From: Taeniopygia guttata
Lineage: Eukaryota > Chordata > Aves > Passeriformes > Estrildidae
NCBI RefSeq assembly: GCF_048771995.1
Contig: NC_133024.1
Location: 44,802,001 to 44,866,000 of the forward strand
Direction: 5' to 3'
Length of the DNA stretch: 64,000 bases
Below the pieces are notes generated by a model, which did not search any database, had not been told where the DNA came from, and worked only from the letters and a program-made list of their open reading frames with translations. The translations under genes were made by a program, and so were the position numbers. Below, one piece after another: positions 30,823 through 55,680 of the stretch (its first letter is position 1; the number at the start of each line of letters is the position of its first letter).

Positions 30823-31379
30823 TGTTGTGGTGTAATGCCAGCTGGAAATAATCACATAACCATTTGCTCAGTTGCCATCGTTGCAATGGGGGAGAAACTC
30901 AGTAGAGTAAAAAAGAGAAAACACATGGGTTGAGATAATGACCACTTGATAGATAAAGCAAGAAAGCACACACACACACAAGCAAAGCAGAACAAGGAAT
31001 TCATTCACCACTTCCCATGGGCAAGCACATGTTCAGCCATCCCCAGGATAACAGGGCTCCATCATTTGCTCAGGCGACTTGAGAAGACAGACATCAACAT
31101 TTTGAGCATCCTCTCCTTCCTTCTTCCACCTCCTTTCTATGCTGAGCATGTTATATGGTATGGGATATTCATTTGGGGTCAGCTGTACTGTCTGTGTCTT
31201 CTCCCAGATTTTTGTGCACCTGTGTTAACTGGATGGTGAAGTGGTGTGAGTCAGAAAAACAGTGGAAGCACTGCTTAGCAGTAACTTAAGCATCCCTGTG
31301 TTATCAGCATAATTTTCAGTGCAAATTTAAAACACGGCACCATATCAGCTACTATGAACAAAATTAACTCTACCCAAGC
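30823..31379 (-). mobile_element. Older LTR, family 1 copy B, split by the provirus
   Basis: This aligns with copy A: shared blocks include 'aaggaattcattcaccactt', 'cagccatccccaggataaca', 'gctgagcatgttatatggta', 'aagcactgcttagcagtaac' and 'cagctactatgaac'. It breaks at the provirus left edge after 'aactctacccaagc'. The remaining few bases of the LTR ('caaa..aaaacca') continue at 39916 to about 39945. Copy B was therefore already in place when the provirus inserted. A short CA repeat lies at about 30968-30979. Confidence 0.8.
31374..31379. repeat. Left target-site duplication CCAAGC
   Basis: The six bases directly before the 5' LTR (CCAAGC) are repeated directly after the 3' LTR at 39916-39921. 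A 6-bp duplication is the size made by alpha- and betaretroviral integrases. Confidence 0.95.
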
Positions 31380-31551
31380 TGTGGGAGGGGGTGTGGCTAG
31401 TGACCTCCCTGCACTGCCATGGGAGGCCACAGATGTGTAGTTTTCCCGCCTCCCAAGTTGTCTGTTATCTGTTCTCCCTTCCCCCAGTTTATGTCAATCA
31501 TTTTGTACTCCTTCCCTTTGTTCTGGAAAGTTCTAAGTTCTTTGTACCCCC

Positions 31552-31720
31552 ATTGGTTCCTCCCCCGAAACCACTCCTTCCCTCTATCCTGGTTGGCCGT
31601 TGCCATGTCACTCTCCGTTGACTCCACCCTCATACCCTCACCCGGTTGGATGCTCTACCCTTTGACCCTCCTCCCCTGTAACTGTTATATACCCTGCCCC
31701 GCCCTGGTTCGGGGCTCTCA
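31552..31720 (+). promoter_or_regulatory. LTR promoter: inverted CCAAT and TATA box
   Basis: An ATTGG (inverted CCAAT) lies at 31552-31556 and TATATA at 31686-31691. Transcription is expected to start about 25-30 bases downstream, near 31712-31720. The same elements recur in the 3' LTR (TATATA 39704-39709). Activity cannot be judged from sequence. Confidence 0.75.
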
Positions 31721-31788
31721 GAGCTGGCTCGCCCTCTGAGTGGTTGCTTCCCTTCACCCCCTTCGCCTTCCCCTTGATAAGCCCTCGG

Positions 31789-31794
31789 AATAAA
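31789..31794 (+). terminator. AATAAA in 5' LTR (normally bypassed)
   Basis: The AATAAA hexamer lies about 75 bases after the inferred transcription start, so it falls inside R and is present at both ends of the viral RNA. The 3' copy at 39807-39812 would direct polyadenylation. Confidence 0.8.
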
Positions 31795-31899
31795 GCCGTC
31801 TGAGAGACCCCGCCTGGTGGAAGACTCCTTCTCTTTATTACCACCATCGCGTGGCCGAAGTCCCCGACTTAGTCGGAGCGGACCCGGACACGTCACAAC

Positions 31900-31917
31900 T
31901 GGCGCCCGAACACGCTG
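31900..31917 (+). other. Primer-binding site, lysine-tRNA-like core
   Basis: It lies two bases after the 5' LTR end. The first 13 bases (TGGCGCCCGAACA) are identical to the complement of the 3' end of tRNA-Lys(UUU), the primer of MMTV and HIV-1. The next five bases (CGCTG) do not fit that tRNA. Either the match is limited to the acceptor stem and part of the T-arm, or another avian tRNA with the same acceptor end is used. Confidence 0.8.
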
Positions 31918-32273
31918 ACCCCTGCACGGAGTCAAGCGGAGAGCGTCTCCTCGACAGCTTCGACTCCGTGAGCCGGCTGCCCGAGGACTTCAAGCGCCGT
32001 TCGGACGTGGTTCCACGGACGACGGTGCTTCGTTTTCGGAAGACCCCTCGCCTCGTGGGCTGCAGACACCCGGAGGAGCAGGAACAGCAGCTTCGCGGAA
32101 GCTCCCTCGCACTCCGGACCTGCAGCGCTTCCACCCCCCTTTGAGGCCATCTTCTTTTCGACGGGCGTCCTTAGTGGTGAGTTTTTCGTGCCCCGTTTGG
32201 CACCTGACCCCGTCTCTTTTCCTTTCTGTTTCTCCTTTGCCTCCTTGGGGAATTTTTTAGCCGTCTTGACATA
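31918..32273 (+). promoter_or_regulatory. 5' untranslated leader with splice donor
   Basis: From the inferred transcription start to the gag start I find no ATG, so gag has the first AUG of the full-length RNA. A near-consensus donor, GTGAGT, lies at 32177-32182 ('ttagtg|gtgagt'). Joining it to the acceptor at 38089 would place the env ATG first on the spliced RNA. The packaging signal is presumably here but was not located. A YY1-type GCCATCTT lies at 32146-32153. Confidence 0.7.
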
Positions 32274-34457
32274 ATGGGCAACCGTATGTCTCCGGCTCGG
32301 CGGGATTTTTATTCCCATGTTAAGTCATCCCTTGTTCTGGGAAATATTTCTTTTAACAAAAGGGATTTAAAAGCCTTAATCAACTTAATTTTTGACCACC
32401 TTCCTGACACTGCGCAGGAAGATTTCAACTCGGTTCAGTTTTGGGGGAAAGTTGGGCGTTTATTATACGATTTACAAGTTAAGGGAAATTTTAAAGTGGG
32501 ACGTTTCTTTCCTTTATTTCATTCTATTTTTACGTTATTTAAACAAAAACGGGAGAGTTGGGCCCCCAGTTTTCCTAACCCTCATTCCGTCCCCCCCACT
32601 CCTAACCCCTTTTCCCCTAAGGGTGGGTCGGGCAGCAGACCCTGCCAAAGTCTGGCACAGGGTTGCCACCGTCTCCCTGCTGCTCCCCGTCCCATCCTGT
32701 CCTCTTTTCGACCTGGGACTGGCCACCCCAGTTCGACCCTTTCCTCGTCCCAAGACCCTCAGACCCCTGTCCCCAGTTTAAAACCTTGCTGTTCAATTCC
32801 TAATCTGTGCCAGCATACATCACAAAATGGCGCCGGCCGCATGGCCGAGCTGGCATCAGAAGCGCCACAAAATGGCGTCCCAGCTCCTCCCTACTCCCCT
32901 CGGGTTCCCGCCATTTCCCCTTTGACCCCTCCTCCGTCGAGTGCCGCCCCTGCGTCGGGTCCCGCCCTGTCTGATGCGTCGATGGTGTCATCGTCGGGAC
33001 CCGCCCCCTCCGTCCCCTTGACCGCGCCCCTGGGTGGGCCCCCGGTGGGAGGGACCGGCCTACAGGAAGGCCACGCCCCTGTGGGTGGGAACTCCCTGCC
33101 GGAAGGCCCCGCCCCGGGAGGTGGGCCTAGTCCCGCCTCCCCCTCTCCAGCCACTTCCGGTTCCCACGCTACCGGAACCGGAAGTCGGCCTGGCCGGAAG
33201 CAGGCCATCTTGGCCTGCAAGGCTCCACGCCACCGGAGCCCAACGGTCAGGGAGAGGTTCAAGGCCCTCACCCGTCCTGCCTCATCCTCCGAAGAGGATG
33301 AGGACAGGGACAGCCCCCGGCCCACACCTAGGTCGGGAGGCGGGTGGGCTAAGATACGGGCAGCGGCCATCGAGGACGGGGACTTAGACCTCGCCCGTGA
33401 CCTTGGGCCTTTTGCGGCACCGGTGATAAGGGAGAGGGGAAAGCGGCCCCGGTGGGAGCAAGTACCATACGCTGAGGTGAAGGAGCTGAGGAAAGCGGCA
33501 AAAGACTATGGCCGCGAATCGCCATTCTTTAAAAACGTTTTGGACCTCACATTTTCTGGACGGACACTGGTCCAGCATGATATCAAATACATCGCCAAGT
33601 CCCTGTTGTCCCCCACGGAACTCCTGCTTTGGGAGGTTCAGTGGAAAAAGCTACTGAAACCTCTCATTATAAAGCACAACCTAGCGGAGACCTTGGGCAC
33701 AGGCGACGAGGTAATGGAGGCTATGGCGGGAGATGGAGAATTCGGCCAGCCGGAGGACCAAATCCAACTGCCGATACCTCTCCTTGATGACATCAGAGAG
33801 GCTGGCCGTGCCGTGCTACTGAAAATCCCGGACGGTAAAACTCCCTCCCAAAGTTTTTCAACTATCCTCCAAGGACCGGACGAGTCATTCATCAAATTTG
33901 TTGACCGCCTCAGAGAGGCCATAGAAAAGCAGATAGAGCACCCTGCGGCGAGGGAAGAGCTCCTCCGAAAGATGGCGGTGACCAACGCCTCTGCGGAGAC
34001 CAAGAAGATCTTGAGAGCGTTACCGCAGGACCCCGAGCCCACCATCTCCCAGATGGTGGAGGCATGCGTCAAAGCAACATCTACAGAGGTAACGGTCGCA
34101 ATGGCAGTGAGTAAAGGGGTGGGGGAGGCAATGTTAAATATGAACACTGTGCGCTGCTTCGGGTGTGGCCAAATGGGCCACATACAAGCGAACTGCCCAC
34201 ACTGGCCCCCGGAGCAGTTCTACAACCCGTATATGCCTTCCCCAAGACCCCCACCAAGGAACTCTTTCCCGCCATACCAGCCGGCGGGAAACGGGCCGCG
34301 GAGCGCGAGGAGGGGCCGCGTGAGGACAACAAATGGCCCTTCTCAGCGCCCGAGCCTCCCTACTATCCGGGAGGACCAATGGCCCAGGGGACAGTTTCGG
34401 AGGATTGGCGGAGCACCGACGACGGACTTCGCCTCCTCCGAAGAACGGCCAACTTAG
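32274..34457 (+). CDS. gag: Gag polyprotein (MA, long Pro-rich region, CA, NC)
   Basis: Gag makes the virion core. The start is the first ATG of the leader. Residues 1-7 (MGNRMSP) give a glycine at position 2, a likely N-myristoylation signal for membrane targeting. Residues about 1-97 form the matrix-like part. Residues about 100-350 are a long Pro/Gly/Ser-rich segment with two 12-residue repeats (258-269, 270-281) and an acidic SSSEEDEDRD stretch. Capsid spans about 376-605, with the major homology region at 533-550 starting QGPDESF. Nucleocapsid has a single zinc knuckle, CX2CX4HX4C, at 628-641, followed by a basic Arg-rich tail. No clear PTAP or PPXY late motif was seen. A -1 slip site at codons 672-673 sends some ribosomes into pro; unslipped translation ends at residue 727. 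The frame is intact. Cleavage sites are not determined. Confidence 0.95.
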   Translation: MGNRMSPARRDFYSHVKSSLVLGNISFNKRDLKALINLIFDHLPDTAQEDFNSVQFWGKVGRLLYDLQVKGNFKVGRFFPLFHSIFTLFKQKRESWAPSFPNPHSVPPTPNPFSPKGGSGSRPCQSLAQGCHRLPAAPRPILSSFRPGTGHPSSTLSSSQDPQTPVPSLKPCCSIPNLCQHTSQNGAGRMAELASEAPQNGVPAPPYSPRVPAISPLTPPPSSAAPASGPALSDASMVSSSGPAPSVPLTAPLGGPPVGGTGLQEGHAPVGGNSLPEGPAPGGGPSPASPSPATSGSHATGTGSRPGRKQAILACKAPRHRSPTVRERFKALTRPASSSEEDEDRDSPRPTPRSGGGWAKIRAAAIEDGDLDLARDLGPFAAPVIRERGKRPRWEQVPYAEVKELRKAAKDYGRESPFFKNVLDLTFSGRTLVQHDIKYIAKSLLSPTELLLWEVQWKKLLKPLIIKHNLAETLGTGDEVMEAMAGDGEFGQPEDQIQLPIPLLDDIREAGRAVLLKIPDGKTPSQSFSTILQGPDESFIKFVDRLREAIEKQIEHPAAREELLRKMAVTNASAETKKILRALPQDPEPTISQMVEACVKATSTEVTVAMAVSKGVGEAMLNMNTVRCFGCGQMGHIQANCPHWPPEQFYNPYMPSPRPPPRNSFPPYQPAGNGPRSARRGRVRTTNGPSQRPSLPTIREDQWPRGQFRRIGGAPTTDFASSEERPT
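33045..33116 (+). repeat. Tandem 12-codon repeat within gag
   Basis: Two imperfect units code for VGGTGLQEGHAP and VGGNSLPEGPAP. At DNA level both keep 'ggaaggcc.cgcccc'. It lies in the Pro-rich region, where length change is tolerated in retroviral Gag. Confidence 0.75.
33153..33185 (+). repeat. Perfect 12-bp inverted repeat in gag with ETS-type sites
   Basis: ACTTCCGGTTCC (33153-33164) and its exact reverse complement GGAACCGGAAGT (33174-33185) are separated by 9 bases. The RNA could fold into a 12-bp hairpin. Each DNA arm holds a CCGGAAGT core, the ETS factor consensus. Function is unknown. Confidence 0.7.
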
Positions 34458-35140
34458 ATCCCGGCCACCGCCAGGTCCTCAAGAGCTCCATGACTGTCAC
34501 CTTCCAGGATGAGGACCTGGTGAGAGTCCCCGCGGAGTTCCTGGAGCCCCCTCACTGCCAGGGCGAAGCGACCGTCCTCATCGTCGGAGACGCAAGGCAC
34601 ACACCCGACAGGATCTCCATCATCCCTGAAGTGGTGTGTGTCCCACCGGGGTCCGAGGTAACGGTCTCGGTCACCTGCCATGAGCCCCCCTACACCTTGG
34701 GCAGAGGACTCCCCTTCGCCCTGCTCTATCTGCTGGACTCAAACGACCTCTCTGAACGGAACTCTGGACAGGACATTCATGTTTTTCTGACTCAAAATGT
34801 AACTAAAGAAAGACCTATAATTCGGACTGTGCTTTCTTTACAGGGAAAGTCGGTGGCGATGGACCTAATGGCAGACACTGGGGCGGATGTCACCATCATT
34901 CCCAGGGCAAAGTGGCCCCGCGACTGGGAGTTGGTGCCCCCTTGTGGCACAATCTCCGGAGTGGGCGGAGCTGTCAACTCCATGCGCAGCCGACGCTTGG
35001 TAAGTGTGGAGGGTCCAGAGGGACAAATAGCCACAATTCGACCGTTTGTGGTTTCTTCCAACATCATGCTATTAGGCAGGGACGTATTGTCCCAGTGGGG
35101 TGCCCGCCTTGACATCCCTAGCCCTGCGTGGGATTTTTAG
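34163..35140 (+). CDS. pro: Pro frame: retroviral aspartic protease (via -1 frameshift)
   Basis: Pro is made as a Gag-Pro fusion, so the first ATG-like codon of the open frame is not a real start. Pro-specific translation begins at about 34292 after the slip at 34286-34292 (frame residue 43). The frame overlaps gag by 295 bases. Frame residues about 60-215 form a segment without a motif I can assign; betaretroviruses carry a dUTPase in this place, but I do not see its conserved motifs. The protease is at about 216-320: active-site DTG at 238-240 within MADTGADVTII, a Gly-rich flap SGVGGA at 265-270, and the second-helix motif LLGRDVL at 303-309. The protease acts as a dimer to cut Gag and Pol. 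No G-patch follows. The frame ends with a TAG placed directly after a second slip site. The frame is intact. Confidence 0.93.
   Translation: MWPNGPHTSELPTLAPGAVLQPVYAFPKTPTKELFPAIPAGGKRAAEREEGPREDNKWPFSAPEPPYYPGGPMAQGTVSEDWRSTDDGLRLLRRTANLDPGHRQVLKSSMTVTFQDEDLVRVPAEFLEPPHCQGEATVLIVGDARHTPDRISIIPEVVCVPPGSEVTVSVTCHEPPYTLGRGLPFALLYLLDSNDLSERNSGQDIHVFLTQNVTKERPIIRTVLSLQGKSVAMDLMADTGADVTIIPRAKWPRDWELVPPCGTISGVGGAVNSMRSRRLVSVEGPEGQIATIRPFVVSSNIMLLGRDVLSQWGARLDIPSPAWDF
34286..34292 (+). promoter_or_regulatory. gag-pro -1 frameshift site GGGAAAC
   Basis: The heptamer G GGA AAC is in the correct register for gag codons 672-673. It is the same slip heptamer used at gag-pro in Mason-Pfizer-type betaretroviruses. 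After a -1 slip reading continues in the pro frame. GC-rich sequence follows, in which CGCGG and CCGCG can pair as a stem about 5-25 bases downstream; a pseudoknot was not verified. Confidence 0.88.
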
Positions 35141-38001
35141 TGTGGGCCACTGCGGAGCGCACCTCCCCACCGTTGAATTGGAAGACCGATGTTCCGGTGT
35201 GGGTGGATCAGTGGCCCCTTGTGGAGGAAAAATTAAATGCGCTCAACGAACTTGTAGAGGAGCAGGTGCGCCTTGGGCATTTAATACCCTCCACCAGCCC
35301 TTGGAACACCCCTGTCTTTGTAATGAAAAAACCAGGCAAAGACAAGTGGCGCCTGCTCCAGGACCTCCGCAGGGTAAATGATGTCATTGAAGACATGGGC
35401 CCCCTCCAGCCTGGGCTTCCCTCACCCTCCATGCTTCCCCGGGATTGGCAGCTCGCAGTCATTGACATCAAGGACTGCTTTTTTAACATCCCCCTGTATC
35501 CTGGAGATGCCCCCAGGTTCGCCTTTTCCGTTCCATCAATTAATCGGGCGGAACCTTATAAAAGGTATCAATGGACCACCTTGCCCCAGGGAATGAAAAA
35601 TTCTCCAGTGCTCTGCCAGACCTTTGTAGCACAGGTTCTTTCGCCAGTCCGCCGGCTTTTCCCTGAAGCCATCATATTGCATTACATGGACGATGTTCTT
35701 GTCTGCGCGGAGACGACCACCTACCTCCGCGCAGCACTCCATAAGACAATAAAAGCCATCAAGGATGCGGGTTTCCAGATTGCGGAGGAGAAGATCCAGC
35801 TCTCCGCCCCATGGAAGTATTTGGGCATCACCATCACAGGAAGGACCGTCGCGCCCCAGTCGGTGACCATCAAAGACGACCCACGGACCCTGCGGGATCT
35901 GCAGCAGATCTGCGGCACCATCACGTGGATCCGACCTCTCCTGGGACTCACCACGGAGGAACTGGCGCCCCTCTTCGAACTCCTGCGAGGAGACGGCGAC
36001 CTGGCTTCTCCACGCGAGCTGACACCTGCCGCGAAGGGAGCCCTGGAGAGAGTTGCGGAGGCCATCAGATCCCGCCAGGCGCACCGTGTGGACCGGGTCC
36101 TTCCCATTACCCTTGCCATCTTGGGTAAGTGCCCAAACTTCCATGGGTTGCTGTTTCAGTGGGATACTGGGCGTAAGGACCCACTCCTCATCATCGAGTG
36201 GCTGTTCCTTCCGCACCAGCCCCCAAAGACCATCTCCACACCCGCTGAATTGATGGCCAAACTCATCATTAAAGGCAGGCAACGCCTCCGGACCCTCGCA
36301 GGGTGCGATCCGGCGTGCGTTTATGTCCCTTTAAATTTGGAACAATTGGAGTCTCTTCTACAAACAAACGAAAATTTACAAATTTCCTTGGACAGCTACC
36401 CCGGCCAGATTTCAATACATTATCCTAAACATAAACTGTTTAAGGACACCTTCTATTTGGCCCCAAAATCCTATAAAAGTAAAACACCAATTAAAGATGC
36501 TCTCACAGTGTTCACTGATGGATCGGGAAAATCCCACAAATCAGTGATCACTTGGAAGGACCCGGAGAGTCAGAAGTGGGAGTCTGACATCCAAATTGTT
36601 GAGGGTTCCCCCCAGATCGCAGAACTTGCTGCGGTTGTGACAGCATTCAAGAAATTCCAACAACCTTTCAATCTGGTCACTGATTCGGCGTATGTAGCCG
36701 GGATAGCAGAGCGGGCAGAACACGCCATGCTCAAAGAAATTCAAAATAAAAAACTGTTCGGGTTGCTCACGGAATTAATTTGGCTGATCTCCCACCGCGA
36801 GCAACCCTATCACATAATGCACGTCCGGGCGCACACAGACCTGCCAGGAGCCATCGCTGAGGGTAACCGGAGGGCAGACCATTTAGCAGCGATTATCGCC
36901 ACATCCTCTTCTGTACATGCAATTACTAATACCGTCCCAGACATCTTTGCACAGGCAAGGCTCAGCCATGCGTTCTTCCACCAAAACGCCCCTGCCCTTG
37001 CCAGGCAATTCAACATCTCGAAGGAACAGGCCAAGGCCATCCTCGCCAGTTGCCCCAGCTGTCAGTCCCTCGCCCTTCCACCGGTGGCGTCAGGGGTTAA
37101 CCCCCGGGGACTGGGAGCTTTGGAGCTGTGGCAGATGGATGTGACACACTACAATGCGTTTGGCCGTCTCAAATACATACATGTGTCAGTTGACACATTT
37201 TCAGGTGCCATCTTCGCCTCTCTCCATACTGGAGAGAAGACGAAAGATGCGAAAAAACACTTATTCATGGCGTTCGCAACGCTGGGAGTCCCGAAGGCAA
37301 TTAAAACCGACAACGGCCCGGGACTCACCTCAAAACAATTCGAGTTGTTCTTGCAGCAATGGGGCATCAAACATACCACCGGTATTCCACATAATCCCAC
37401 AGGGCAGGCCATAGTGGAGCGCTCCCACAAAGAACTGAAAAGATTGCTCGATCAGCAACATGACGCGGCATTGTCCATGACTCCGGTCGAGCGCCTTAGT
37501 AAAGCACTTTATGTACTGAATTTCTTAAATTGCACCGACCGTGAGCCAGACCCGCCCGTCATCAGGCACTTTACGAACACCACGCGAGCACTTTTGAAGG
37601 AGCGCCCACCGGTCCTTGTCCGGGACCCGGAATCCCGAGCCATCACAGGGCCCTTTCCCTTAATAACCTGGGGGAGAGGGTATGCCTGTGTTTCAACAGC
37701 TAATGGCCCAAAATGGATTCCGGGAAAATACGTGAAGCCATTCCTGGAAGATGCCCCAGCTGCAGAACCACCGTCGCCACAGAACCCACAGGCTGCGTCT
37801 CCCACAACACCGGACGACGCAGTCGCGTGGAGAAGACGAAAGAAGAAGAGGACCGGGAACCGTCCAAACTTGGTGTCCCGAGTCCTCATCACCAGACTGT
37901 ACCACCCACCGGACTCGACATCTCAAAACACCCCATCCCCTCCAGTTACCTTTCCCTTACCCCCTTACCTTACCCGCTTTCCCTATACCCCTGTGCCCTA
38001 A
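35128..38001 (+). CDS. pol: Pol: reverse transcriptase, RNase H, integrase
   Basis: Pol is reached by a second -1 slip at 35131-35137, so it has no start codon of its own (the first codon of the open frame is GTG). RT has a catalytic Asp at 113 (VIDIKD), LPQGMKNSP at 152-160 and YMDD at 186-189. RNase H carries D464, E499, D519 and D584. Integrase has the HHCC zinc site (H614, H618, C642, C645) and the DDE triad D671, D728, E764 with exactly 35 residues between the last two. The integrase C-terminal domain is around 828-875. A further tail of about 80 residues is Pro-rich with a basic patch WRRRKKKR at 901-908. All catalytic residues are present. The enzyme set copies RNA to DNA and inserts it with a 6-bp duplication, as seen at the flanks. 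Confidence 0.96.
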   Translation: MGFLVWATAERTSPPLNWKTDVPVWVDQWPLVEEKLNALNELVEEQVRLGHLIPSTSPWNTPVFVMKKPGKDKWRLLQDLRRVNDVIEDMGPLQPGLPSPSMLPRDWQLAVIDIKDCFFNIPLYPGDAPRFAFSVPSINRAEPYKRYQWTTLPQGMKNSPVLCQTFVAQVLSPVRRLFPEAIILHYMDDVLVCAETTTYLRAALHKTIKAIKDAGFQIAEEKIQLSAPWKYLGITITGRTVAPQSVTIKDDPRTLRDLQQICGTITWIRPLLGLTTEELAPLFELLRGDGDLASPRELTPAAKGALERVAEAIRSRQAHRVDRVLPITLAILGKCPNFHGLLFQWDTGRKDPLLIIEWLFLPHQPPKTISTPAELMAKLIIKGRQRLRTLAGCDPACVYVPLNLEQLESLLQTNENLQISLDSYPGQISIHYPKHKLFKDTFYLAPKSYKSKTPIKDALTVFTDGSGKSHKSVITWKDPESQKWESDIQIVEGSPQIAELAAVVTAFKKFQQPFNLVTDSAYVAGIAERAEHAMLKEIQNKKLFGLLTELIWLISHREQPYHIMHVRAHTDLPGAIAEGNRRADHLAAIIATSSSVHAITNTVPDIFAQARLSHAFFHQNAPALARQFNISKEQAKAILASCPSCQSLALPPVASGVNPRGLGALELWQMDVTHYNAFGRLKYIHVSVDTFSGAIFASLHTGEKTKDAKKHLFMAFATLGVPKAIKTDNGPGLTSKQFELFLQQWGIKHTTGIPHNPTGQAIVERSHKELKRLLDQQHDAALSMTPVERLSKALYVLNFLNCTDREPDPPVIRHFTNTTRALLKERPPVLVRDPESRAITGPFPLITWGRGYACVSTANGPKWIPGKYVKPFLEDAPAAEPPSPQNPQAASPTTPDDAVAWRRRKKKRTGNRPNLVSRVLITRLYHPPDSTSQNTPSPPVTFPLPPYLTRFPYTPVP
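35131..35137 (+). promoter_or_regulatory. pro-pol -1 frameshift site GGATTTT followed by stop
   Basis: In the pro frame the codons are GAT TTT TAG, so the stop comes directly after the slip heptamer G GAT TTT. A -1 shift reads GGA TTT TTA into pol. MMTV uses the closely related GGAUUUA at its pro-pol junction. The pro and pol frames overlap only here, which fixes the site with good confidence. Confidence 0.88.
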
Positions 38002-38020
38002 ATTGTTTCCTTTTTAACCC

Positions 38021-38046
38021 AAAAGGGGGAGCTGGGAGGGGAGGGA
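38021..38046 (+). other. Internal polypurine tract between pol and env
   Basis: A purine run with AAAAGGGGGAG follows the pol stop codon by 19 bases. It continues as 'ctgggaggggaggg', which resembles the start of the 3' LTR (TGTGGGAGGGGG). It could be an accessory plus-strand primer site or a relic of an earlier 3' end. The resemblance was judged by eye. Confidence 0.6.
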
Positions 38047-38051
38047 ACCAA

Positions 38052-38089
38052 ACCTTTTCTGTTATTTACGTTTTTTCTTGTGTTAATAG
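38052..38089 (+). promoter_or_regulatory. env splice acceptor
   Basis: A pyrimidine-rich run with 'gttttttcttgtgttaatag' ends in AG at 38088-38089, seven bases before the env ATG. Together with the leader donor at 32177 it would give a singly spliced env RNA. Confidence 0.75.
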
Positions 38090-38096
38090 AATAAGG

Positions 38097-39458
38097 ATGG
38101 CTGCCCAAATGTCACCAATCCGGGAGAAACATCAGGAATCGCCCCACTGCACCCAGCTGGCCGTCGCCGTGGCCTTTGTCATCCTGTGGCTACAAGCGGC
38201 GGACGGCTGGATTGTTCAGCAGCCGAAGGAAAATGTGTGGGTCACGCTCGCCAAGTCCTTGCAGCAGGACAATCTATGTTTGGCCATGGGCAATGTGGAC
38301 AACCCCTTGTCCACATGCCTGGTGGGGGTTCCCCTGGTCGCCGATGATTGGCCAGTTTTCAACTCCGACCTACTCCGAACCACGGGTAAGAGACCCAACC
38401 CGGTCGACACTTGGGACGAGTGGACCAAAATTCTATCGAACAGTAAAGAGGAACCCCAAGAATTGGACCTGCTGGGGTCCTCTCACGCAGAATACTGCGT
38501 AAAATTTTACTATAGAAGGCCAAGTCAGAATTGGCATGGACTTGACTTGGCCAAGAATACATACAGAAAGGATGTAACACCTCTAAGCAAAAAATACAAC
38601 AGTCAAACCTGGTGCAATTACACCAGCCAGGTGGTTTCGGTCTCGTCCACACGTCCTAAGGTGTTGCCCAAGGGGATGTTTCTTATCTGTGGGGACAGAG
38701 TGTGGTCAGGCATTCCATCTCGGCTCCAGGGAGGACCATGTAGCCTTGGCAAGCTTGCGACTCTCACTCCAAATAAAACCCAAATACTGGAATGGAGGAA
38801 GGAAAAACAATTGGCCCGCAAGAAACGTTCATACGACCAATTCGATTCAAATTGTGACTCGCAGTTGTACAATTGGGGCAAGACAAAGAGAATTGCTGCG
38901 TCCATATTCCTTCCATGGTACGCAGCAGCAAAAGCCCTTGGTGAGCTTTCTCACCTGGAGTGTTGGGTAAACAAGAATGCCAACGCTACGTCGGCCGCCC
39001 TTTCAGACCTCTTGGCGGACGAACAGACCACCAGGCACGCAACCCTACAAAATCGGGCTGCTATAGACTTTTTACTTTTAGCCCATGGCCACAGCTGCGA
39101 GGACTTCGATGGGTTGTGCTGCTTCAACCTGTCGTCAAGAAGCAAATCCATTCAGGCCCACATCCAACAGATAAAAGAGCAAGTAAAGGACTTAAAGACT
39201 GAGAACCCTTCGGCTGCCGACCCAATAGACAAGACATTCTCGCAGTGGGGCATCCCCGGATGGGCAGCCCCCATCGTGAAAGGACTTATTTGGATTTTAG
39301 TTATTATTTTCCTTATTTTCGTTGCGTTAGCCATTTTCAAACAATATTTAGTTAAGACTTTCGGTTCCGCTTATTTAGTTAATAAAGACGGGGGAGATGT
39401 GGGAGGGGGTGTGGCTAGTGACCTCCCTGCACTGCCATGGGAGGCCACAGATGTGTAG
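38097..39458 (+). CDS. env: Env glycoprotein, short SU and alpharetrovirus-type TM
   Basis: Env binds the receptor and fuses membranes. The ATG at 38097 was chosen because it lies just after the splice acceptor; the same frame is open back to about 37713 but that part overlaps pol. Signal peptide hydrophobic core is at about 20-35. SU is about residues 37-244 and unusually short. A furin-type site RKKR lies at 241-244. TM starts at 245, with cysteines 253 and 289 bracketing an internal fusion loop, then the LQNRAAIDFLLL segment and CX6CC at 334-342, which is the alpharetroviral (avian leukosis group) pattern. The membrane span is about 392-413, followed by a tail of about 40 residues. Possible N-glycosylation sites are N174, N226, N296 and N344. 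The final 20 residues are encoded inside the 3' LTR and the stop is at 39456-39458. Intact. The receptor is unknown. Confidence 0.93.
   Translation: MAAQMSPIREKHQESPHCTQLAVAVAFVILWLQAADGWIVQQPKENVWVTLAKSLQQDNLCLAMGNVDNPLSTCLVGVPLVADDWPVFNSDLLRTTGKRPNPVDTWDEWTKILSNSKEEPQELDLLGSSHAEYCVKFYYRRPSQNWHGLDLAKNTYRKDVTPLSKKYNSQTWCNYTSQVVSVSSTRPKVLPKGMFLICGDRVWSGIPSRLQGGPCSLGKLATLTPNKTQILEWRKEKQLARKKRSYDQFDSNCDSQLYNWGKTKRIAASIFLPWYAAAKALGELSHLECWVNKNANATSAALSDLLADEQTTRHATLQNRAAIDFLLLAHGHSCEDFDGLCCFNLSSRSKSIQAHIQQIKEQVKDLKTENPSAADPIDKTFSQWGIPGWAAPIVKGLIWILVIIFLIFVALAIFKQYLVKTFGSAYLVNKDGGDVGGGVASDLPALPWEATDV
39385..39397 (+). other. 3' polypurine tract
   Basis: 'aaagacgggggaga' ends exactly at the 3' LTR start. 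It would prime plus-strand DNA synthesis. It is interrupted by one C and lies inside the env reading frame. Confidence 0.85.
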
Positions 39459-39915
39459 TTTTCCCGCCTCCCAAGTTGTCTGTTATCTGTTCTCCCTTCC
39501 CCCAGTTTATGTCAATCATTTTGTACTCCTTCCCTTTGTTCTGGAAAGTTCTAAGTTCTTTGTACCCCCATTGGTTCCTCCCCCGAAACCACTCCTTCCC
39601 TCTATCCCGGTTGGCCGTTGCCATGTCACTCTCCGTTGACTCCACCCTCATACCCTCACCCGGTTGGATGCTCTACCCTTTGACCCTCCTCCCCTGTAAC
39701 TGTTATATACCCTGCCCCGCCCTGGTTTGGGGCTCTCAGAGCTGGCTCGCCCTCTGAGTGGTTGCTTCCCTTCACCCCCTTCGCCTTCCCCTTGATAAGC
39801 CCTCGGAATAAAGCCGTCTGAGAGACCCCGCCTGGTGGAAGACTCCTTCTCTTTATTACCACCATCGCGTGGCCGAAGTCCCCGACTTAGTCGGAGCGGA
39901 CCCGGACACGTCACA
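39398..39915 (+). repeat. 3' LTR (518 bp)
   Basis: Same length as the 5' LTR and identical except at 39608 and 39728. It carries the end of env (39398-39458), TATATA at 39704-39709 and AATAAA at 39807-39812, the functional polyadenylation signal of the viral RNA. The CACA end is followed by the CCAAGC duplication. As a promoter it could also drive transcription into the downstream host DNA. Confidence 0.97.
39807..39812 (+). terminator. Viral polyadenylation signal AATAAA
   Basis: AATAAA in R of the 3' LTR. Cleavage is expected 15-25 bases downstream, which would set the R/U5 border near 39830. Inferred from position only. Confidence 0.8.
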
Positions 39916-39921
39916 CCAAGC
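39916..39921. repeat. Right target-site duplication CCAAGC
   Basis: Exact copy of 31374-31379, directly after the 3' LTR CA end. The interrupted older LTR (copy B) continues from here to about 39945. Confidence 0.95.
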
Positions 39922-52702: not shown

Positions 52703-54105
52703 TGTCATGGTTTGACACGGGAAGAGAATTTTTTTTAGAAGGAAGAGGTTCATCCAGTCAGGGGTCAGGTTTAGATACTGACACTTGGGGTGACCAATTG
52801 AAGGTAGACACGCCTCTGAGAACACAGAGGGGTTAAAAGCGGAATTCCCAGGAGGACTCGTCCTTCTTTGGTTCCAGTCACCGCATGATACGGACCTCCC
52901 CTGCCCAGCCCGGGCTGGGTGGGGGAGGGGAGCCATGCGGCCTGCAGAGGTAGGCCAGGAGGTAAAGGATCGGAACCGGCTGGGTCAGCTCCTGCAGATG
53001 GAAGGGTGGAGAACATCTGGGATGTTTTTGTTCCCCCTCCCCTAAGCCAGAGGGAAAAGAGATAGAGAGCCAGCAGACACCTAGGAGTTTGCCGGCGGAG
53101 GAGAAAGAGAAGGGGGGGGGGAAGATGCCCAGCGTGGGAGACTAGAGAAAGAGTCCTGGGCTGAGATTGCAGCCGTCCGGGGAGTCCGGGAATTTTAACC
53201 CTTTCCTGTGAAATGAAGGCTTTATGAAATATTACTCCTCCTGAATTTGAAGAAAAGAGAGACAGCTTGAAACCTCAGATGTTCAGAGAAGAAGGTTGGG
53301 GGCAGATGATAGAGTGGCTTTTGGCTGGACTCTGCTTGTTTACCATAGACTGAACCACTCTTTCTTTCAAGAGGGACTGCATTTTAGGGGGATGCATTGG
53401 TGAGCCAAGAGACCTTCTTCAGCAACTACCAGTTTTGGAGTGGACAGAGAGAGAGCTGAGGAGGGTGTGAGGATGCCCTCCATCTTCAGAGAGAAAGAGA
53501 AGGCGATCTCTGTCTTTTGGACCCTCGGCCCCAGGGGAAAATGGGGGGGACTCTAGTCCCGAATTGTGATACTGGACTGTTGTTCCTGGTGGTCCTTGGC
53601 AAAGCATCCTTAAAGGGGCCCTATAAGCAGTCTCTGTCCATGCACGGTGGTGAGAGCACTGTGACATGGAGAGGAGAGTGTCACACTGGCTGGTGTGTCT
53701 GGGCGGTGCCACGTGTGACATTGGAAACACAAGAGGTGGCAGTTGTGTTTCCTGGGGGTCTGTGGTGCAAGGGGGACTCCTCTCTTCCCCGATGGACTCA
53801 GTATTGATTATATTGAAGGGTGAAAACTTGATTAAGGATCCAAATGGGTCTCGCTGGGGTTTGGTGGAGTTGGGTGGAGGGAGGAGAAATGTTTTGGAAG
53901 GTTTTCATTTCGAATTTTGTGTGTGTTTTTTTTTCTTTCCTTTCTTTTCCTTTTATAGTAGTAGTAGTAGTAGTGTAATAAAGCTTTTTCCTTTGTTATT
54001 AAGTTTGGCCTGCTTTGCTCTGTTCTTGATCACATTTCACAGCATTTGATTGGTAAATTGTATTTTCATGGGGCGCTGGCATTGTGCCAGCGTCAAACCA
54101 TGACA
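52703..54105 (+). mobile_element. Solo LTR, 1,403 bp, with target duplication
   Basis: The ends are a perfect 14-bp inverted repeat: TGTCATGGTTTGAC at the start and GTCAAACCATGACA at the end. A 5-bp duplication (TCTGT) flanks it. The interior is GC-richer than the host DNA. A TATAAG lies at 53623-53628 and AATAAA at 53977-53982, so sense is the + strand with U5 about 54000-54105. A hairpin with an 8-bp stem (54074-54092) precedes the end. No gag or pol frame is present; the open frames at 53419-54049 are incidental. The long LTR and 5-bp duplication suggest an endogenous retrovirus distinct from the 31-40 kb provirus. The clean ends suggest moderate age. Confidence 0.85.
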
Positions 54106-55039: not shown

Positions 55040-55680
55040 ACATCACAAGAGGATAGGGAATAGGGGTCGTGAGCACTTTGCCAAAGTCTTTCTCTGCCAG
55101 TCTTTTCTCCTCATGCACTTTCTCTGCTTCAGCACAGGATCCCACCCATGCAAGACAGTCTTTCATTAAAGACTTTCATTCTCCGACATGGGTCCTTCCA
55201 GCAGGCTGTAGTTCTTCACAAATGGCTCCAGTTTGTGTCTTTTCTTATCCTTCACAGACTGCTCCAACATGGATCACCTCTGGATACACAGCTCCTACCA
55301 AACAACCTCCTCTAGCATTGGCTTCCTTCATGGGCCACCGTTTCTGTCATGAACTTTATGAACTTTATTTAGCAGAGGCTCTCCATGGGGTCACATCTTC
55401 TTTAAGAACACATCCAGAAAAACACTATCTGCTACTCCATGATCTGCAGGTGGATCTCTGCTCCCCTGTGGACCTCCATGGGCTGCAGGGTCACAGATGC
55501 CTCATGGTCTTCATCACCAGCTGCAGGAGAATCTCAGCTACAGCACTTGGAGCACCTCCCTCTTCTCCTTCTTCACTGACCTTGTGTCTACAGAGTTGTT
55601 GCTCCCACATATTCTCACTCTTCTCTCCCAGCTGCTTCTGTGCAGCAGTTTTTCCCTCTTCTTCAAAACATCATTAAAAA
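55040..55680. repeat. Old avian retroelement repeat, family 3 (reverse copy)
   Basis: It contains 'gtgagcactttgccaaagtc', several 'aacatggatcac' and 'catgggtccttccag' internal repeats, 'cacctccctcttctccttct', 'ctgaccttgtgtctacagag' and 'cccacatattctcactcttc', in an order I associate with a bird endogenous-retrovirus repeat. The 202-codon open frame at 55069-55677 lies wholly inside it, is low-complexity (Ser/Pro/Leu) and is unlikely to be a gene. Confidence 0.55.

What the first reader, a model, noticed from the sequence alone, without database searches (positions are those of the whole stretch)
32274..39458. Mosaic genome: betaretroviral gag-pro-pol with alpharetroviral-type env
Separate gag, pro and pol frames with two -1 slips, a Gly2 myristoylation signal and a Lys-type PBS core are betaretroviral traits; avian alpharetroviruses have gag and pro fused in one frame. 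Yet the TM subunit has an internal fusion loop between two cysteines and a CX6CC region of the avian leukosis type. A past env exchange between genera is the simplest explanation.
Basis: partly seen in the sequence, partly recalled or inferred. Interest (0 to 1): 0.8.

Follow-up and report, generated by a model that had tools for sequence, protein, structure and literature searches.

The report
Songbird retrovirus with mixed-ancestry genes
A young retrovirus copy in the zebra finch genome pairs inner-particle and enzyme genes of the betaretrovirus-like kind with a surface protein of the chicken leukosis kind, and the same pairing recurs in related songbird copies, so it looks like an old union and not a recent swap in this one copy.

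Summary
Window 31380-39915 is a full provirus: two 518-base LTRs (2 differences), a 6-base target duplication, a Lys-type PBS, open gag, pro, pol and env, and -1 slip sites at 34286 and 35131. The host is zebra finch or very near.

RT and integrase fall with avian ERVK; joining that group to alpharetroviruses is rejected (AU p 2e-6 for RT, 5e-6 for IN). TM is alpharetroviral in type (fusion loop between cysteines, CX6CC, nearest solved relative ASLV TM). In TM trees alpharetroviruses and ERVK stand against the gamma-type TM of TgERV-F-like elements, whose IN groups with alpharetroviruses. Pol and env trees thus conflict.

The pairing is not private to this copy: 23 of 24 env loci examined in the genome have an ERVK integrase, none an alpha or TgERV-F one, and pol and env mostly diverge together. 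'Betaretroviral' is loose: no G-patch motif, one zinc knuckle, dUTPase doubtful, RT unresolved against HERV-K. An ancient env exchange among class II lineages is the best reading; its direction is open and shared inheritance with alpharetroviruses is not excluded. The papers I could see do not describe this combination.

The parts
31374..31379 (.). target site duplication, 5' copy (CCAAGC)
   Evidence: read from flanks
31380..31897 (+). 5' LTR, 518 bases, TG...CA, TATA-like at 31686, AATAAA at 31789
31900..31912 (+). primer binding site core TGGCGCCCGAACA (lysine type, recalled)
32274..34457 (+). gag: MGN start; p24 N and C domains; one CCHC knuckle (residues 628-641)
   Evidence: in PDB the capsid part is nearest 8c9m (named only Gag protein, 85 bits), then HERV-K Gag (65)
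34286..34292 (+). GGGAAAC, -1 slip site gag to pro, stem downstream
34115..35140 (+). pro frame with aspartic protease near its end; no G-patch motif
34478..34810 (+). domain before PR, conserved among songbird ERVKs, possible degenerate dUTPase
   Evidence: E 0.078; no dUTPase match in Pfam; low confidence model
35131..35137 (+). GGATTTT, -1 slip site pro to pol
35122..38001 (+). pol frame: RT (YMDD), thumb, RNase H, integrase
37704..39458 (+). env open frame; likely ATG 38097 (453 aa, 98% to P0005 of Taeniopygia guttata); stop lies inside the 3' LTR
38817..38828 (+). RKKR, SU/TM cleavage site
38853..38963 (+). internal fusion loop between Cys253 and Cys289 of env
39096..39122 (+). CX6CC motif of TM (CEDFDGLCC)
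39384..39397 (+). purine-rich stretch (one C) just before the 3' LTR, likely polypurine tract
39398..39915 (+). 3' LTR, 2 of 518 bases differ from the 5' LTR
39916..39921 (.). target site duplication, 3' copy (CCAAGC)

Best explanation
This is a recently inserted provirus of a songbird ERVK family (class II, betaretrovirus-like gag-pro-pol) whose lineage long ago exchanged env with the alpharetroviral side, or both took it from one source. It would work as a simple retrovirus: separate gag, pro and pol read through two -1 slips, and a disulphide-linked, cysteine-flanked fusion-loop envelope of the ALV type. Shown: anatomy, open frames, tree conflict between pol and env, and the same pairing in related songbird elements. 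Inferred: that slipping and the disulphide occur, that the conflict comes from env exchange by recombination, and that it predates the split of the ERVK sublineages compared here.
For: RT: window with Vidua P0194 100/100, in a 14-row ERVK clade 95/88, apart from a starred alpha+TgERV-F(+P0302) clade; 12 ERVKs with 8 ALV/EAV-type rows rejected p 2e-6. IN: ERVK+MMTV+turtle against alpha+TgERV-F 100/100; ERVK with alpha rejected p 5e-6. TM: ERVK+other bird env+alpha+a filoviral GP2 against TgERV-F+gamma references 100/100; alpha with TgERV-F rejected p 1e-8, and again without the GP2 row. PDB by sequence: IN nearest MMTV (206 bits against 138 for RSV), TM nearest ASLV. Of the proteins that the window's own env and pol had found, 122 have an IN match and 0 of 122 are nearer RSV than MMTV. 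In the genome, 36 of the 40 top-scoring env matches (93-100% identity) have this IN just upstream. Of 24 env loci the best IN is ERVK type in 23, absent in 1, alpha or TgERV-F in 0. Of 20 loci chosen by IN, 10 have an avian-type TM, 10 have no TM match in the stretch fetched, 0 have gamma as best TM. IN and TM distances correlate, r 0.71, p 1e-4, 19 rows. In a quick tree a 102-row TM clade (SH-aLRT 100) holds all 8 rows that I had marked as ERVK-linked. TM is more alike than IN in 7 of 7 ERVK-P0255 (alpharetroviral) pairs but in only 5 of 21 ERVK-ERVK pairs.
Against: RT does not join ERVK to HERV-K: 12 ERVKs+HERV-K alone is rejected p 0.002, and both 'all beta-like together' and 'HERV-K outside' are allowed, p 0.13 each. 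So the beta affinity rests mainly on IN and frame layout. The IN tree has no outgroup, and its ERVK group alone has 81/81. The TM-over-IN margin is small (0.38 against 0.35 identity). Alpha+TgERV-F+gamma on one side of the TM tree is not rejected (p 0.48), and alpha+ERVK together has only 61/90, because the root is unsure. The ALV TM row has 72 residues. Avian_gp85 covers 52 of 246 profile positions. Linked public proteins, those for TgERV-F included, are gene models that could join neighbours; genome loci meet this for ERVK in zebra finch, but I could not fetch TgERV-F loci. The 24 env loci were found with the window's env, so they say what pol goes with this env, not the reverse; the reverse test is 20 of 150 listed IN places. 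Some songbird envelopes (Molothrus, Serinus, Catharus, Prinia, Corvus and others) lie outside the 102-row clade and their pol is unknown.
Confidence: 0.62

Rival explanations
1. Shared inheritance: the common ancestor of avian ERVK and alpharetroviruses already had this env. Mammalian betaretroviruses and TgERV-F are the ones that replaced it, so this provirus carries its native envelope.
For: The songbird ERVKs examined have this TM or no TM match. Pol and env mostly diverge together inside ERVK. TgERV-F is a published env replacement (PMC10536682, passages). RT cannot root class II.
Against: The IN split puts MMTV with ERVK, so mammalian betaretroviruses would have had to switch. TM between ERVK and alpha is slightly closer than IN, although inside ERVK it is slightly more diverged.
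Confidence: 0.27
2. Recent exchange in this provirus or its close zebra finch family with a passing ALV-like virus.
For: LTRs differ at only 2 of 518 bases, so the copy is young. One other locus (L012) does show an ERVK pol of another sublineage with a window-like env (IN 55%, TM 72% to the window).
Against: The pairing is shared with Vidua and deeper songbird rows, and window TM is far nearer other ERVK TMs than ALV. A survey of 53 bird genomes, Passeriformes among them, with ALV-E as query located such ERVs in Galliformes only (PMC10820513, passages).
Confidence: 0.04
3. Convergence: the cysteine-flanked fusion loop and CX6CC arose independently, so there is no real mosaic.
For: Filoviral GP2 shares the layout and matches weakly (PMC3758190).
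Against: 61% identity to ASLV TM over 72 residues, Avian_gp85 SU match 7e-16, starred TM split.
Confidence: 0.02

Closest known systems
Avian ERVK / avian beta-like class II ERVs (TguERVK, name recalled; Bolisetty et al. 2012, not held here; its 'alphabeta' name seen cited in PMC4373062)
   Same: RT, IN, frame layout; several homologues are named ERV-K Pol by their sources
   Different: None found: this is a member. The env type is what the papers I could see do not describe.
Alpharetrovirus (ALV/RSV, EAV-HP)
   Same: Envelope type: CX6CC, fusion loop between cysteines, no CXXC, closest TM in PDB
   Different: gag and pro are in different frames; RT and IN fall outside the alpha clade
TgERV-F (songbird class II ERV with mammal gamma-type env)
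   Same: A class II mosaic in songbirds with env foreign to its pol
   Different: The reverse pairing: TgERV-F-like IN groups with alpharetroviruses and its TM with gamma; here pol is ERVK and TM alpharetroviral
Type D betaretroviruses (MPMV group) and python ERV PyERV
   Same: Beta-like gag-pro-pol with an env of the CX6CC class
   Different: Their env is gamma-type (PMC3758190, sections read), with N-terminal fusion peptide; here it is the avian variant

Membership tests
Betaretrovirus | gag, pro, pol in three frames with two -1 slips | tested here: met
   (slip sites present; slipping itself not tested)
Betaretrovirus | dUTPase in the pro frame | tested here: inconclusive
   no dUTPase match in Pfam; best PDB match of the family profile is a dUTPase, 2d4l (recalled as MPMV), E 0.078; model confidence too low
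Betaretrovirus | G-patch after protease (recalled) | tested here: not met
   simple motif search empty, no Pfam G-patch match, and the frame ends within about 25 residues of the protease's LLGRD
Betaretrovirus | two zinc knuckles in NC (recalled) | tested here: not met
   one CCHC match and no later cysteine in Gag
Betaretrovirus | RT within the mammalian beta clade | tested here: inconclusive
   one beta RT reference only (HERV-K)
Betaretrovirus | IN nearer MMTV than RSV | tested here: met
Alpharetrovirus | gag and pro in one frame | tested here: not met
Alpharetrovirus | RT and IN inside the alpha clade | tested here: not met
Avian gamma-type Env | CX6CC in TM | tested here: met
Avian gamma-type Env | internal fusion peptide about nine residues after cleavage, flanked by cysteines (PMC3758190) | tested here: met
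   RKKR at 241-244, Cys253, Cys289
Avian gamma-type Env | TM groups with ALV apart from gamma TM | tested here: met
Avian gamma-type Env | SU-TM disulphide | not testable with these tools
   needs protein
TgERV-F | alpha-like pol with gamma-type env | tested here: not met
Avian ERVK | RT in the songbird ERVK clade | tested here: met

The most novel reading that the evidence does not exclude
Avian ERVKs, not alpharetroviruses, are the old home of the 'avian gamma-type' envelope: the alpharetrovirus genus arose when an alpha-like pol captured env from a bird ERVK, so the ALV surface protein is descended from an ERVK one.
Probability: 0.2. Interest if true: 0.75.

Novelty: new variant of a known kind. 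Interest (0 to 1): 0.5.

Why it matters
[quoted passage not shown] Here it sits on ERVK-type pol in songbirds, in a family whose 40 best env matches in the zebra finch genome are 93-100% identical. That widens the pool from which the ALV envelope could have come, gives a second class II env mosaic in songbirds with the reverse pairing to TgERV-F, and warns that env type cannot be used to assign bird ERVs to genera.

Tried and rejected
Viral contigs gave no confirmed relatives. Protease does not tell alpha from beta (MAV 43, RSV 42, 3sqf, recalled as MPMV, 42 bits). AlphaFold of the pro frame: protease mostly good, domain before it about 62 pLDDT at best, so no fold search was made. The second AlphaFold job and the promoter-scan tool were not used. 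Papers by Bolisetty 2012, Henzy 2014 and Chen and Cui 2019 are not held; what I say of them is recalled or cited by others. The env types behind deeper ERVK pols (P0216, P0196, P0167, P0212, P0306) could not be tested, because the searches did not complete or not reached. A recent swap in this copy was considered and rejected (see rivals).
Full report
What is there. The window is G000:C1:44802001-44866000 of a 1.14 Gb assembly. Its env protein is 98% identical to a Taeniopygia guttata protein and its best named pol and env relatives are songbird ones, so the host is zebra finch or very near. Positions 31380-39915 are one provirus: 518-base LTRs differing at 2 bases, a CCAAGC duplication on both sides, and a lysine-type PBS core two bases after the LTR. 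(One search counts 3 mismatches because it ran two bases past the LTR.) With recalled bird substitution rates of 2-3.5e-9 per site and year, 2 of 518 gives roughly 0.5-1 million years, with a wide error. Gag, pro, pol and env are open. The slip sites GGGAAAC and GGATTTT lie in the right frames, and a strong stem follows the first only.

Gag, pro and pol. By sequence against the PDB, RT is nearest HERV-K (498 bits, next HIV-2 188; of the 60 rows shown none is named as alpharetroviral), IN nearest MMTV (206 against 138 for RSV), capsid nearest 8c9m (named only Gag protein, 85) and HERV-K (65), RSV p27 37.5; the protease does not discriminate. That 7sr6 is HERV-K and 7usf MMTV is recalled; the PDB names say only Polymerase and Integrase. 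Alpharetroviral Pol sequences were then fetched with a padded RSV integrase query. This gave RSV-like P0245, EAV-HP P0254, LPDV P0298 and others. P0256-P0258 and P0269 I put with alpha by their 52-59% IN identity to RSV, although two of them bear ERV-K names. The same call gave a group with about 51-55% IN identity to RSV and, in some records, a gamma-type env, which fits the published TgERV-F; the name is my assignment. Its RT rows (P0262, P0272 of zebra finch, P0276) and the rows with both IN and TM (P0273, P0280, P0288, P0291, gene models labelled Hirundo rustica) are 78-89% alike in IN, one lineage.

RT tree: 38 rows; 11 of the 49 named were dropped for lack of RT cover. The window pairs with Vidua P0194 (100/100) inside an ERVK clade of 14 (95/88). 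Alpha and TgERV-F form a starred clade, with P0302 next to them, which I had listed as ERVK from its name. Joining 12 ERVKs with 8 ALV/EAV-type rows costs 68 log-likelihood units (p 2e-6). HERV-K is not tied to either side: all beta-like rows together p 0.13, HERV-K outside p 0.13, and 12 ERVKs plus HERV-K alone p 0.002. The honest label is therefore avian ERVK, class II, betaretrovirus-like, not Betaretrovirus. IN tree: 19 rows, ERVK+MMTV+turtle against alpha+TgERV-F 100/100; ERVK with alpha rejected, p 5e-6; no outgroup.

Envelope. The env frame has an Avian_gp85 match over 52 of 246 profile positions, RKKR, Cys253 and Cys289 around the fusion loop, CX6CC and no CXXC. Its best solved relative is ASLV TM, then filoviral GP2; syncytin-2 and MLV are weaker. 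TM tree: 30 rows; 13 ERVK rows (8 linked to ERVK pol by record or genome, 5 by env alone), 7 other bird envelopes, two alpha rows and a filoviral GP2 against 4 TgERV-F and three gamma references, 100/100. Alpha with TgERV-F is rejected (p 1e-8; also without the GP2 row). Alpha plus TgERV-F plus gamma on one side is not rejected (p 0.48), which only says the root is unsure. Without the GP2 row, ERVK plus alpha stand together with weak support (61/90). So pol gives (alpha, TgERV-F | ERVK, MMTV) and TM gives (alpha, ERVK | TgERV-F, gamma). For 11 public rows IN and TM come from the same protein record (P0194, P0205, P0239, P0137, P0109, P0317, P0255, P0273, P0280, P0288, P0291) and for the window from one provirus.

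How old is the pairing? One search lists 94 env matches; the 40 top-scoring are 93-100% identical (a few partial ones lower down also are), and 36 of those 40 have one of the 52 best IN matches (78-100%) just upstream. Sixteen further env loci of 53-91% identity were fetched. With L001-L008 that makes 24, all found by their env. The best IN is ERVK type in 23 (in L016 the top one is P0216-type, farther upstream; the one beside env is window-type), none in L009, and alpha or TgERV-F in 0. Taken the other way, 20 loci chosen by IN (56-94% to the window; 20 of 150 listed) all have ERVK IN; within about 3 kb downstream 10 show the avian TM (L063, L064 and L066 as short weak pieces), 10 show no TM match, and 0 a gamma TM as best. 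Of the 18 among them at 56-62%, 10 have no TM match, and many of that group have long open pol frames (up to 1,277 codons), as expected for env-less amplification. IN and TM distances correlate (19 rows, some of them near-copies, 4 of 16 fetched loci dropped for short or missing pieces; r 0.71, p 1e-4). L012 breaks the pattern: its IN is of another sublineage (55% to the window) and its TM is window-like (72%), so pol-env shuffling may occur inside ERVK. In a quick tree of 135 TM rows (133 different; window copies among them), a clade of 102 (SH-aLRT 100) holds all 8 rows marked ERVK-linked. The two alpha rows sit in another group of 15 with 5 non-songbird, 3 songbird (Molothrus, Serinus, Catharus) and 5 unnamed rows; further songbird rows (Prinia, Corvus, Passer, Hirundo-labelled) also lie outside the 102. 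Their pol partners are unknown.

Exchange or inheritance? Inside ERVK, TM changes slightly faster than IN (mean identity 0.59 against 0.64; TM higher in 5 of 21 pairs), yet between ERVK and the alpha record P0255 TM is higher in 7 of 7 pairs (0.38 against 0.35). This leans towards a TM split younger than the pol split, hence exchange, but the margin is small and saturation is likely. With IN placing MMTV beside ERVK, and non-recombinant betaretroviruses and lentiviruses having beta-type TM (PMC3758190, its section 3), one exchange between the ERVK and alpha sides, or one shared donor, is the cheaper story. If class II is rooted between alpha and all beta-like lineages, shared inheritance with a switch in the mammalian line costs no more. 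I put 0.62 on exchange and 0.27 on inheritance.

What is in print. Henzy and Johnson 2013 (PMC3758190; [quoted passage not shown] PMC10536682 (passages) reports TgERV-F and the bird ERVs of Chen and Cui with mammal-type env. PMC9967133 (passages) mentions recombinant avian forms without this pairing. PMC10820513 (passages) located ALV-like ERVs only in Galliformes among 53 bird genomes. In PMC6523648, PMC11009239, PMC4272516 and PMC5006616 the passages that my terms brought up do not mention this env type in ERVK. In the listings of my ten paper searches no title or abstract start describes avian ERVK with alpharetroviral-type env. The library is open-access only, and Bolisetty 2012 in particular may touch on it.

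Bottom line.

Noticed in passing
window 34478-34810: About 110 residues before the protease are conserved among songbird ERVKs (GD.KHTP.EIEILPG...KGQ.IAQ.IP) and weakly resemble the C-terminal half of a dUTPase; possibly a degenerate dUTPase turned to another use.
   Followed up: partly
L012 (G000:C1:19432373-19437142): ERVK integrase of one sublineage upstream of an env of the window's sublineage: a possible exchange inside ERVK.
   Followed up: partly
G000 contig 18, 0.66 to 4.05 Mb: 20 env copies at 53-67% identity, 18 of them with one of two sets of stop codons: probably amplified as part of a larger repeat rather than by new insertions.
   Followed up: no
G000 contig 7, 2.09-2.23 Mb: A cluster of near-identical proviral copies, many spaced about 20 or 46 kb apart, probably segmental duplication.
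   Followed up: no
G000 contig 41 and others: A large ERVK group at about 60% IN identity with very long open pol frames; 10 of the 18 loci fetched show no env match.
   Followed up: partly
window 52771-53904 (-) and 55057-55677 (+): Three open stretches of 161-206 codons near a GC-richer region (52-56 kb), unidentified.
   Followed up: no
window 39398-39458: The env frame runs through the purine-rich stretch and ends 61 bases inside the 3' LTR, so the C-terminus of Env is encoded by U3.
   Followed up: no
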